The notes below the pieces were generated by a model. The model did not search any database and had not been told where the DNA came from. It worked only from the letters and a program-made list of their open reading frames with translations. Below, piece by piece: positions 28,896-48,293 of a DNA stretch of 64,000 nucleotides. The stretch is from Delphinus delphis (Eukaryota; Chordata; Mammalia; Artiodactyla; Delphinidae), in contig NC_082688.1 in assembly GCF_949987515.2 (NCBI RefSeq), forward strand, positions 72,792,731 through 72,856,730, written 5' to 3'. Within the stretch, counting starts at the first letter, position 1. Each line of letters starts with the position of its first letter. Made by a program: the position numbers and the translations under genes.

Positions 28896-29115
28896 GGGCT
28901 TCCCTGGTGGCGCAGTAGTTGAGAGTCTGCCTGCCAATGCAAGGGACACGGGTTCGTGCCCTGGTCTGGGAAGATCCCACATGCCGCGGAGCGGCTGGGC
29001 CCGTGAGCCATGGCCACTGAGCCTGCACATCCAGAGCCTGTGCTCTGCAACGGGAGAGGCCACAACAGTGAGAGGCCCACGTACCACAAAAAAAAAAAAA
29101 AAAAAATTAAAAAAA
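28896..29115 (+). mobile_element. CHR-type SINE joined to an L1 tail
   Basis: Begins gggcttccctggtggcgcag and ends in a poly-A near 29088-29106. It lies immediately after an L1 3' end, and the pair share one 15-bp target-site duplication (28733-28747 and 29116-29130). Confidence 0.93.
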
Positions 29116-44439: not shown

Positions 44440-44800
44440 GGACCTCGAGTTAGATATTTTCCCGTTTCCTCATCCGTAACGTGGAGGTAAATAACAATAT
44501 TACTCAAAAGATTATTGTAAGGGCTTCCCTGGTGCAGTGGTTGGGAGTCCGCCTGCCGATGCAGGGGACACGGGTTCGTGCCCCGGTCCGGGAGGATCCC
44601 ACATGCCGCGGAGCGGCTGGGCCCGTGACCCATGGCCGCTGAGCCTGTGCTTCGCAACGGGAGAGGCCACAGTGAGAGGCCCGCGTACCACAAAAGAAAG
44701 AAAGAAAGAAAAAAAAGATTATTGCAAGAGTTCAATTAGATAGTAGATGTAAAGCGCTGGTTAGGGTAGTATACACATTAAAAAGTGTTCAATAAGGACA
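44440..44800 (+). mobile_element. MIR split by a CHR SINE
   Basis: ccgtttcctcatccgtaacg with ataacaatattact precede the SINE (44521-44712), and tagatgtaaagcgctggtta with aaaagtgttcaataag follow it, together one forward MIR. Confidence 0.7.
44521..44712 (+). mobile_element. CHR-type SINE with small internal deletions, inside a MIR
   Basis: The body is very GC-rich and otherwise close to the family (ggagcggctgggcccgtga), but it lacks three bases in the head (ctggtgcagtgg) and about 20 bases after the gctgagcctg block. Tail of (aaag)n. TSD aaaagattattgtaa at 44506-44520 against aaaagattattgcaa at 44713-44727. It splits a plus-strand MIR. Confidence 0.92.
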
Positions 44801-45846: not shown

Positions 45847-45978
45847 TTATTTTCTGCCTCCAAAATCTTTCTCCTTCTCATCCATTATCCCTATTCTTCA
45901 AGTTTCTTCTCCAAGTATTTCTTTAATGACCTTCGTATTGCCTTCATTTTCCTCCGATGAGAGATGCAAAAATGGAAT
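45847..45978 (-). pseudogene. IZUMO3: IZUMO3 exon 7, frameshifted terminal exon
   Basis: The acceptor tctag above 45978 is intact. The exon completes the membrane helix (F-H-F-C-I-S-H) and encodes a basic tail (R-R-K-M-K-A-I-R-R). After Glu224 the frame runs into TAG at 45893-45891. Shifting by one base restores G-I-M-D-E-K-E-K-D-F-G-G-R-K and a TAA at 45849-45847, so one base has been lost near 45893. The native stop overlaps an AATAAA (45851-45846); a second AATAAA lies at 45561-45556. Confidence 0.88.
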
Positions 45979-46090
45979 CTAGACTAGAGAAATAAGATAA
46001 TCTCAACTTCAGTACTAGTAGCCCAACTCTTAAAAAAAATTGTAACAATTGTTTTTTCCTCCTTTTTTGAATTCCTCTACAAAAGTTTTT

Positions 46091-46162
46091 CTCATACTTC
46101 ATTGTACCTCCTCCATTTCCTATGTTCTCATACTTCATTGTACCTCCTCCATTTCCTATGTT
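46091..46162. repeat. Perfect 36-bp tandem duplication in IZUMO3 intron 6
   Basis: The 36 bases 46091-46126 (starting ctcatacttcattgtacctc) are repeated without a mismatch at 46127-46162. Lack of divergence implies a young duplication or a variable two-copy minisatellite. Confidence 0.95.
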
Positions 46163-46329: not shown

Positions 46330-46420
46330 AGTAACAAAGCACCTCCCAATATTACACCTTCTGCTAGTAATATCAGAAATAGTGTGATCTCTTGATTCTC
46401 AGCCTTCTTTGGATCATCTT
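46330..46420 (-). pseudogene. IZUMO3: IZUMO3 exon 6, transmembrane exon
   Basis: A 91-nt exon entering in phase 1 and leaving in phase 2, with acceptor cttctttcag at 46430-46421 and donor GTGAGT at 46329-46324. It encodes an acidic/lysine juxtamembrane stretch (E-D-D-P-K-K) and then most of the single transmembrane helix, rich in Leu, Ile and Gly, as expected for a type I membrane protein. Confidence 0.88.
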
Positions 46421-46844: not shown

Positions 46845-46925
46845 CTGCACAATATTCTCCTTTGAAGCACCAAGTGGTGATGCGAAGACAGGTCCAACAA
46901 TCCAGGATAGGACCTTCAGTCACGA
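46845..46925 (-). pseudogene. IZUMO3: IZUMO3 exon 5, intact, carries C-W-T-C
   Basis: An 81-nt phase-1/phase-1 exon with acceptor ttctctcag at 46934-46926 and donor GTAACA at 46844-46839. It encodes [12 protein letters not shown] and then two further cysteines (158 and 164), the hinge region of the Izumo domain. The open frame is intact; residue 157 is Trp where I recall Arg in human. Confidence 0.9.
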
Positions 46926-47377: not shown

Positions 47378-47395
47378 CACAATCTTCAGAACAAG
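47378..47395 (-). pseudogene. IZUMO3: IZUMO3 micro-exon 4 (18 nt) with lost splice acceptor
   Basis: Eighteen bases encode the tail of residue 133 and then C-S-E-D-C (residues 134-138), the second cysteine pair of the Izumo domain. The donor GTATGT at 47377-47372 is good and the upstream tract (tgattctctttta) is pyrimidine-rich, but the two bases before the exon (47397-47396) read AC, not AG. The exon is placed by phase, by its cysteine pair and by the total length. Because it is 18 nt, skipping it would keep frame but remove two structural cysteines. Confidence 0.82.
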
Positions 47396-47611
47396 GTAAA
47401 AGAGAATCAGAAAGATCTAATGAGCTTAGAATCAACTTAGTGTTTGCCATAGTTATCCCCAAGTCATCTTTATTTGGTTACCCATTAAGTTCCAGCCACC
47501 CCTCCACCCATTCTAAATTATTCTAATGTGAAATCACATTCCTACTCTCACCCCTCATTTCCTATTCCTTTCACATAATTTCAGTGTTGTTAGATAGACA
47601 TCTTATATTAC

Positions 47612-47701
47612 CAACTTCAGAGAAGTTCTTTAATAGTTCTTTCAGTTTGGATTCCAGGTTTTGGCGGACATCGAGAAGCTTGACTTGAAGGATAAGGGCA
47701 C
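47612..47701 (-). pseudogene. IZUMO3: IZUMO3 exon 3, intact
   Basis: A 90-nt phase-1/phase-1 exon with acceptor cctttag at 47708-47702 and donor GTAATA at 47611-47606. It encodes residues 103-132, another amphipathic helix of the Izumo domain, with a potential glycosylation sequon N-F-S at residues 128-130. No stop or frameshift. Confidence 0.9.
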
Positions 47702-47849: not shown

Positions 47850-47924
47850 CTTTCCATGTTTCATTGCTCAGTTTATAAAGTTCATTCTTCAGCCATGTTC
47901 TCAAATTGACATCCTTTTGAACAG
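47850..47924 (-). pseudogene. IZUMO3: IZUMO3 exon 2, intact
   Basis: A 75-nt phase-1/phase-1 exon. The acceptor is a pyrimidine tract ending ctctctag just above 47924, and the donor is GTGAGG at 47849-47844. It encodes residues 78-102 of the helical bundle, including the stretch [18 protein letters not shown], which contains one N-glycosylation sequon (N-E-T at residues 98-100). Confidence 0.9.
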
Positions 47925-48061: not shown

Positions 48062-48293
48062 CCAACACCCGAAGCATCTTGTCACTGTGGGAGACCTTGA
48101 AGCTTAAACGGATCATCTTCTTAATCTGCCGTTCAAGCAGATGAGTTCAGCCAGGGACTTCTGAGGGTACCAGCTTTACCAGCAAGGACTTAATATCCTT
48201 GATGAATTTGGGGTCACATTCCAAACAGCCTTTGACCCCGTGGAAGGCTGCCAGGGACAGGGGCAGGAGCAAGAGCAGCCGCAGGTCCCCCAT
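48062..48293 (-). pseudogene. IZUMO3: IZUMO3 exon 1 with premature TGA at codon 49
   Basis: The ATG at 48293-48291 has G at -3 and G at +4, a good Kozak context. It opens a hydrophobic signal peptide ending near residue 22, followed by the first cysteine pair C23-L-E-C26. The frame runs to Gly48, then reads TGA (48149-48147), and then continues as perfectly good Izumo sequence (T-H-L-L-E-R-Q-I-K) to the donor. The intact codon was most likely CGA (Arg), so this is a CpG-type C-to-T change. The donor GTGAGC at 48061-48056 is intact and leaves phase 1. Confidence 0.93.

What the first reader, a model, noticed from the sequence alone, without database searches (positions are those of the whole stretch)
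48147..48149. IZUMO3 carries a premature stop at codon 49 in a cetacean genome
The minus-strand frame from a good ATG reads signal peptide, C-x2-C and helical sequence to Gly48, then TGA, then resumes in the same frame with clear IZUMO3 sequence. The expected codon is CGA (Arg), so one CpG transition explains it. The truncated product would lack almost the whole Izumo domain and the membrane anchor. IZUMO3 is needed for normal acrosome formation in mouse, so losing it in a whale or dolphin would be a notable change in a sperm gene. I know of no description of it, but could not search.
Basis: partly seen in the sequence, partly recalled or inferred. Interest (0 to 1): 0.88.

Follow-up and report, generated by a model that had tools for sequence, protein, structure and literature searches.

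The report
Broken sperm gene IZUMO3 in dolphin
In a genome that matches the common dolphin, the sperm gene IZUMO3, which mice need to build a normal sperm cap, is cut short by a stop signal near its start, and the protein seems to have been losing its usual constraint already in dolphins and their close relatives.

Summary
The minus strand carries IZUMO3, one copy found, with TGA at codon 49 (48149-48147) inside an otherwise open exon. Of 129 related protein rows, 128 have a residue there: Arg, Gln or Lys; all 8 cetacean rows have Arg. Assembly size, scaffold count and two chromosome lengths match the common dolphin Delphinus delphis, mDelDel1.2, QV 66.4, so a base error is unlikely. It is not a cetacean-wide loss: orca, beluga, narwhal and three baleen whales keep Arg49. 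Two further lesions were missed: the 18-nt mini-exon with two of the eight conserved cysteines has AC instead of AG at its acceptor, and a 4-nt deletion truncates the tail. Orca, beluga and narwhal proteins lack the same mini-exon and tail. On delphinoid branches 9 of 19 changes hit highly conserved sites, as random hits would; other IZUMO3 clades 320 of 1242; delphinoid IZUMO1 1 of 17. I read this as relaxed constraint in Delphinoidea, then a knockout allele in the common dolphin. Whether the stop is fixed or segregating could not be tested: one haplotype, no reads, no other dolphin DNA.

The parts
48062..48293 (-). IZUMO3 exon 1: ATG, signal peptide, C23-L-E-C26, codon-49 stop, GT donor
48147..48149 (-). 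TGA, codon 49; Arg in all 8 cetacean protein rows, Gln in hippo and camel
47850..47924 (-). IZUMO3 exon 2, AG acceptor and GT donor present
47612..47701 (-). IZUMO3 exon 3, AG acceptor and GT donor present
47378..47395 (-). 18-nt mini-exon 4 (A-CSEDC), two of the eight conserved Izumo-domain cysteines; GT donor present
47396..47397 (-). Acceptor of the mini-exon reads AC, not AG; the mini-exon is absent from the orca, beluga and narwhal rows seen
46845..46925 (-). IZUMO3 exon 5 ([20 protein letters not shown]), splice sites present; holds Arg157Trp
46330..46420 (-). IZUMO3 exon 6, presumed transmembrane segment, splice sites present
45891..45978 (-). IZUMO3 exon 7 up to TAG 45893-45891; a 4-nt deletion relative to the baleen-whale tail (inferred from protein) shifts the frame here, and GIMDEKEKDFGGRK* survives in another frame just downstream

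Best explanation
This is the only IZUMO3 copy found in a common dolphin genome, and it carries a derived loss-of-function allele. Shown: TGA at codon 49; one match in the genome; Arg49 in the other cetacean proteins; an AC acceptor before the mini-exon; a shifted tail. Inferred: a CpG transition CGA to TGA made the stop; translation yields a 48-residue precursor (about 26 residues after signal cleavage) without the four-helix bundle or membrane anchor, and the mRNA is probably subject to nonsense-mediated decay (85 nt to the exon end, with exon junctions downstream). The acrosomal granule would then lose the IZUMO3 anchor that mouse spermatids need. The allele fell on a gene whose constraint had probably already weakened in Delphinoidea, where the cysteine-bearing mini-exon and the last 16 residues were lost. 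I think the stop is more likely common or fixed in the species than rare, but this is not shown.
For: TGA in frame in a 232-nt exon with clear IZUMO3 on both sides. One DNA match in the 2.66-Gb genome, one candidate scored. Codon 49 in protein rows: Arg in 8 of 8 cetacean rows; R 101, Q 17, K 2 in the 120 of 121 non-cetacean rows with a residue. Assembly QV 66.4. IZUMO1 in the same genome is open through 9 exons with GT-AG splice sites, its 21-nt mini-exon included (boundaries set by hand). In-frame ATGs after the stop within the first 120 codons are M60 and M73, both without the signal peptide, and the two in-frame GT sites upstream of the stop look weak as donors. Delphinoid branches: 19 changes against 5 on baleen-whale branches; 9 of 19 against 0 of 5 at sites at least 90% conserved in non-cetaceans, where 110 of 218 sites are so conserved. 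Delphinoid IZUMO1: 1 of 17. Izumo3-null mouse spermatids: the granule fails to attach to the inner acrosomal membrane (PMC9976968, passage).
Against: Only one haplotype of one animal was seen, so a segregating allele is possible. Apart from the stop, the dolphin branch since the orca split shows just two replacements and no frameshift of its own, so no decay after the stop shows a long-dead gene. Skipping the mini-exon is also annotated in many mammals (56 of 121 non-cetacean rows lack it, the human row P0078 among them), so its loss need not be disabling. The constraint test is small and was chosen after looking; P for 9 of 19 is 0.0065 against delphinoid IZUMO1, 0.036 against other IZUMO3 clades and 0.078 against short IZUMO3 clades only. 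The IZUMO1 contrast is partly a difference between the genes: outside delphinoids the share at conserved sites is 0.14 in IZUMO1 and 0.25 in IZUMO3. Protein records cannot show a stop and under-report broken genes.
Confidence: 0.57

Rival explanations
1. The stop is real but a rare or intermediate-frequency allele in a species whose IZUMO3 is otherwise intact; the primary haplotype happens to carry it.
For: A single haplotype was assembled as primary and the alternate haplotype is a separate record not available here. CpG transitions are the commonest source of recent variants (recalled). All three changes private to the dolphin branch (E32K, R49stop, R157W) fit CpG transitions. No further decay follows the stop.
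Against: The gene already shows lesions and signs of weak constraint in the wider clade, which makes a rise to high frequency plausible. No frequency data either way.
Confidence: 0.34
2. IZUMO3 protein is still made, by read-through of TGA, a downstream start, or splicing around the stop.
For: In-frame ATGs exist at codons 60 and 73, and two in-frame GT sites lie upstream of the stop. From M60 on, the sequence stays 96-97% identical to the cetacean rows without the mini-exon.
Against: Downstream starts lack the signal peptide and the C23-x2-C26 pair; the in-frame GT sites read GTTTGG and GTGACC, and the better-looking GTAAAG is out of frame; the base after TGA is A, not the C usual in leaky stops (rule recalled).
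Confidence: 0.06
3. The stop is an assembly error or lies in a second, dead copy.
For: Nothing positive; raw reads could not be inspected.
Against: QV 66.4 for the primary assembly, about one error in 4 million bases; one DNA match in the genome; introns present, so it is not a retrocopy.
Confidence: 0.03
4. The delphinoid changes are adaptive remodelling of IZUMO3 rather than relaxed constraint, and the shorter protein is a functional version. (Not exclusive of the others.)
For: A form without the mini-exon is annotated in many mammals; positive selection on IZUMO3 is reported in primates (PMC3432370, passages); orca, beluga and narwhal keep an open frame of 218 residues.
Against: The share of hits at conserved sites equals random placement (9 of 19 with 110 of 218 sites conserved), narwhal has Lys182 in the presumed membrane segment, and the common dolphin then gained a stop.
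Confidence: 0.2

Closest known systems
Lineage-specific gene losses in cetaceans (hair keratins, sebum genes, melatonin modules, enamel genes and others)
   Same: Inactivated genes, in some cases with relaxed selection; only titles and starts of abstracts seen
   Different: Those listed concern skin, hair, sleep, smell or teeth; this concerns a testis-expressed acrosome gene, and fixation is not shown
IZUMO3 of orca, beluga and narwhal
   Same: Same missing mini-exon and same end at KKLEE in rows P0002, P0005, P0010; Lys59 and Ser70 shared
   Different: Arg49 kept, open frame of 218 residues
IZUMO3 of baleen whales and hippo
   Same: 95-96% (baleen rows) and 89% (hippo) identical to the window's frame
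   Different: Arg49 (Gln in hippo), full tail, and an isoform with the cysteine mini-exon in humpback and hippo
Mouse Izumo3 knockout
   Same: Predicted molecular outcome: no secreted, membrane-anchored IZUMO3
   Different: A laboratory null in a species that needs the gene; the dolphin's acrosome is not known to be affected (PMC9976968 and PMC8830517, passages; the original paper, 10.1002/mrd.23520, was not held)

Membership tests
IZUMO3 (Izumo family) | Izumo domain PF15005 | tested here: met
   E 9.8e-47, profile 1-143 of 143, with X at the stop
IZUMO3 (Izumo family) | Closest relatives are named IZUMO3, not IZUMO1, 2 or 4 | tested here: met
   All 120 listed rows of 191 hits carry PF15005, and nearly all are named IZUMO3 by a source; a few are unnamed or hypothetical
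IZUMO3 (Izumo family) | Eight conserved cysteines of the Izumo domain | tested here: inconclusive
   All eight codons are in the DNA, but two sit in a mini-exon whose acceptor reads AC
IZUMO3 (Izumo family) | Signal peptide and single transmembrane segment in one open frame | tested here: not met
   TGA at codon 49 separates the signal peptide from the rest; the locus is IZUMO3 by descent, not a working IZUMO3 by sequence
Unitary pseudogene | Single copy with introns, intact orthologues in relatives | tested here: met
   gene order around the locus was not tested
Unitary pseudogene | At least one disabling mutation | tested here: met
   TGA at codon 49; also an AC acceptor and a 4-nt tail deletion
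Unitary pseudogene | Disabling mutation fixed in the species | not testable with these tools
   One haplotype of one animal
Unitary pseudogene | Neutral evolution (dN/dS near 1) after the loss | tested here: inconclusive
   A protein-level proxy fits relaxed constraint on delphinoid branches as a whole; no codon data from relatives, and too few changes after the orca split
Unitary pseudogene | No protein made | not testable with these tools
   No testis RNA or proteome of this species held

The most novel reading that the evidence does not exclude
IZUMO3 came under relaxed selection in the ancestor of dolphins, porpoises and white whales, losing two of its eight structural cysteines and part of its tail, and was then lost outright in the common dolphin and perhaps its near relatives, so that these animals build an acrosome without the IZUMO3 granule anchor that mouse sperm require.
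Probability: 0.35. Interest if true: 0.66.

Novelty: new member of a known kind. Interest (0 to 1): 0.48.

Why it matters
[quoted passage not shown] A wild mammal that breeds without it would show that this anchor can be dispensed with or replaced, and would point to the replacement. Acrosome coverage is reported to vary within dolphins (PMC13404353, passages), so the gene's state can be set against sperm form species by species. If the stop is only segregating, it is a natural knockout in which males with and without it could be compared.

Tried and rejected
Cetacean-wide loss: rejected, Arg49 in all 8 cetacean rows. A truncated or restarted IZUMO3 annotated in another dolphin: a second protein search with the part from M60 on showed no dolphin but orca among the best 120 of 175. 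Rescue by splicing out the stop: two in-frame GT sites only, neither donor-like. Retrocopy or second copy: rejected. Bottlenose-dolphin sperm proteome: in the main text none of the 7 occurrences of 'izumo' is IZUMO3; supplements could not be read. Gene Loss DB paper: no occurrence of 'izumo' or 'sperm' in the main text. The scarcity of dolphins among IZUMO3 rows (orca only, against Tursiops, Globicephala, Pseudorca and Lagenorhynchus among IZUMO1 rows) fits a wider loss but is not evidence, because only cluster representatives are named. A mitochondrial check of the species did not complete; assembly statistics served instead. The delphinoid figure is 9 of 19 when conservation is taken from non-cetacean rows and 10 of 19 when taken from every row outside delphinoids; I first blamed a second narwhal model, P0011, for this, but one search shows that the difference is R55Q, just above or below the 90% line. 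I report the smaller figure.

Full report
What is there. The minus strand between 48293 and 45891 carries IZUMO3 in seven exons. Every splice site of the model is GT-AG except one: exon 1 48293-48062, exon 2 47924-47850, exon 3 47701-47612, mini-exon 4 47395-47378 (acceptor AC), exon 5 46925-46845, exon 6 46420-46330, exon 7 from 45978. Codon 49 is TGA at 48149-48147 and the frame resumes at once. With X at the stop, the joined translation matches Pfam IZUMO over the whole profile and weakly resembles solved IZUMO1 chains (best E 0.12). The genome gave one match to the 441-bp stretch over exon 1 and the start of exon 2. A PF15005 search of the genome also found two further first exons on C20, open, and a hit below the cut-off on C3. 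The first on C20 is IZUMO1; the second looks like IZUMO2, by my reading of sequence and position.

Which animal. G000 has 2,663,394,344 bases in 630 contigs, with C6 of 116,596,928 and C3 of 173,057,467 bases. The Delphinus delphis assembly mDelDel1.2 is reported with 630 scaffolds, 2,663.52 Mb, chromosome 6 of 116.6 Mb and chromosome 3 of 173.06 Mb (PMC12022549, passages). I take the window to be common dolphin chromosome 6. The small difference in total length is unexplained. The same passages give consensus QV 66.4, one juvenile male from Scotland, and a separate alternate haplotype. Risso's dolphin (1,145 scaffolds) and orca (447) do not fit (passages). The protein agrees: Asp82 is shared with orca alone among the 8 cetacean rows.

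Codon 49 elsewhere. Two protein searches gave 129 distinct rows (191 and 175 hits, the best 120 of each listed). All 8 cetacean rows (orca, beluga, narwhal twice, humpback twice, right whale, gray whale) have Arg. Of 121 non-cetacean rows, 120 have a residue: 101 Arg, 17 Gln, 2 Lys. Rows are cluster representatives, some are isoforms of one species, and protein records cannot show a stop, so this gives the ancestral state better than it shows how rare the loss is. CGA as the ancestral codon is inferred: TGA is one CpG transition away, and Gln in hippo and camel fits CAA.

Two further lesions. First, the 18-nt mini-exon that encodes CSEDC has AC where an acceptor needs AG. By alignment with IZUMO1 these are two of the eight Izumo-domain cysteines (eight cysteines named in PMC3432370, passage). 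IZUMO1 in the same genome has a like 21-nt mini-exon with an AG acceptor. Orca, beluga and narwhal rows (4 rows) all lack the mini-exon; humpback has it in one of two isoforms. This is limited evidence, because the right and gray whale rows lack it too, as do 56 of 121 non-cetacean rows: the exon is an annotated cassette in many mammals, and the beluga and right whale rows are labelled isoform X2. Second, exon 7 has 2 nt where the baleen-whale protein needs 6, so the frame stops at TAG 45893-45891 while GIMDEKEKDFGGRK* survives in another frame. Orca, beluga and narwhal rows P0002, P0005 and P0010 end at the same KKLEE; narwhal model P0011 reads as if the shift were bridged. That the DNA lesions themselves are shared is inferred from these proteins.

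Constraint. Parsimony on 218 sites and eight tips, with a species tree typed from recall, places 19 changes (the stop counted) on delphinoid branches and 5 on baleen-whale branches; 9 of 19 against 0 of 5 fall on sites at least 90% conserved in non-cetaceans, and 110 of the 218 sites are that conserved. On a tree of 128 rows (2 of 130 dropped for gaps), among clades of 3-8 rows with 8 or more changes, the delphinoid share (10 of 19 there) was exceeded only by three nested clades of New World leaf-nosed bats and kin. Eighteen disjoint clades of that list pool to 320 of 1242; clades with fewer changes, baleen whales among them, are not in that pool. A wider pool of 27 disjoint clades gives 348 of 1383, with delphinoids at 10 of 18, stop left out.

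Control. I assembled IZUMO1 from the same genome (9 exons, 363 residues, no stop; boundaries set by hand) and repeated the count over residues 1-252 with 77 distinct rows of 121 (40 dropped for gaps, 4 duplicates). Delphinoids have 17 changes, 1 at a conserved site, with 101 of 252 sites conserved; 16 other disjoint clades pool to 233 of 1658. P for 9 of 19 is 0.0065 against delphinoid IZUMO1, 0.036 against other IZUMO3 clades and 0.078 against short IZUMO3 clades only. Three limits: the test was chosen after seeing the data; the species differ (IZUMO1 rows include porpoises but no beluga or narwhal); and IZUMO1 has a lower share than IZUMO3 everywhere (0.14 against 0.25), so the IZUMO1 contrast overstates the lineage effect. 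What stands is that delphinoids lie above the IZUMO3 norm and not above the IZUMO1 norm. I read it as relaxation of IZUMO3 in Delphinoidea; adaptive change is not excluded.

Likely consequence. The product would be a 48-residue precursor. The stop lies 85 nt from the exon end with several junctions downstream, so decay of the mRNA is expected, though stops this near the start can escape it (recalled). Restart at M60 or M73 would lack the signal peptide. No donor-like in-frame site lies upstream. In mice, Izumo3-null spermatids have a granule that floats free of the inner acrosomal membrane (PMC9976968, passage). A review reports that cetacean sperm lack the acrosomal equatorial segment and that acrosome coverage differs among dolphins; its text (killer whale about 3/4) and table (about 60%) disagree (PMC13404353, passages). 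That makes a test possible and proves nothing.

What stays open. Fixation is the main gap. One haplotype of one animal was seen; no reads, no alternate haplotype and no DNA of other dolphins could be reached. The three changes private to this branch (E32K, the stop, R157W) all fit CpG transitions, as recent polymorphism or unconstrained drift would both give.

Literature. The searches, over open-licence PMC papers, and the passages read show no report of IZUMO3 loss in a cetacean. Of 52 papers naming IZUMO3, 40 were listed and passages of 5 were read. Subscription papers and supplements were out of reach.

Noticed in passing
window 46089-46160: Perfect tandem duplication of a 36-bp unit in IZUMO3 intron 6.
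   Followed up: no
IZUMO3 codon 109 (exon 3): The window and all 8 cetacean rows have Val where 121 of 121 non-cetacean rows have Gly: a change on the cetacean stem at an otherwise invariant site.
   Followed up: partly
IZUMO3 rows P0027, P0047, P0091, P0092, P0110 (bats): Noctilionoid bats show an even higher share of IZUMO3 changes at conserved sites (0.53-0.59), a second candidate lineage for relaxed or adaptive change.
   Followed up: no
L009 1843-1863 and window 47378-47395: IZUMO1 and IZUMO3 share a mini-exon of 21 and 18 nt carrying the same C-x3-C pair, an old shared exon structure.
   Followed up: partly
window 28944-28995, 39833, 44566-44617: Short signatures of a tRNA-derived SINE that I recognise as the cetacean CHR type (name recalled; string matches).
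   Followed up: partly
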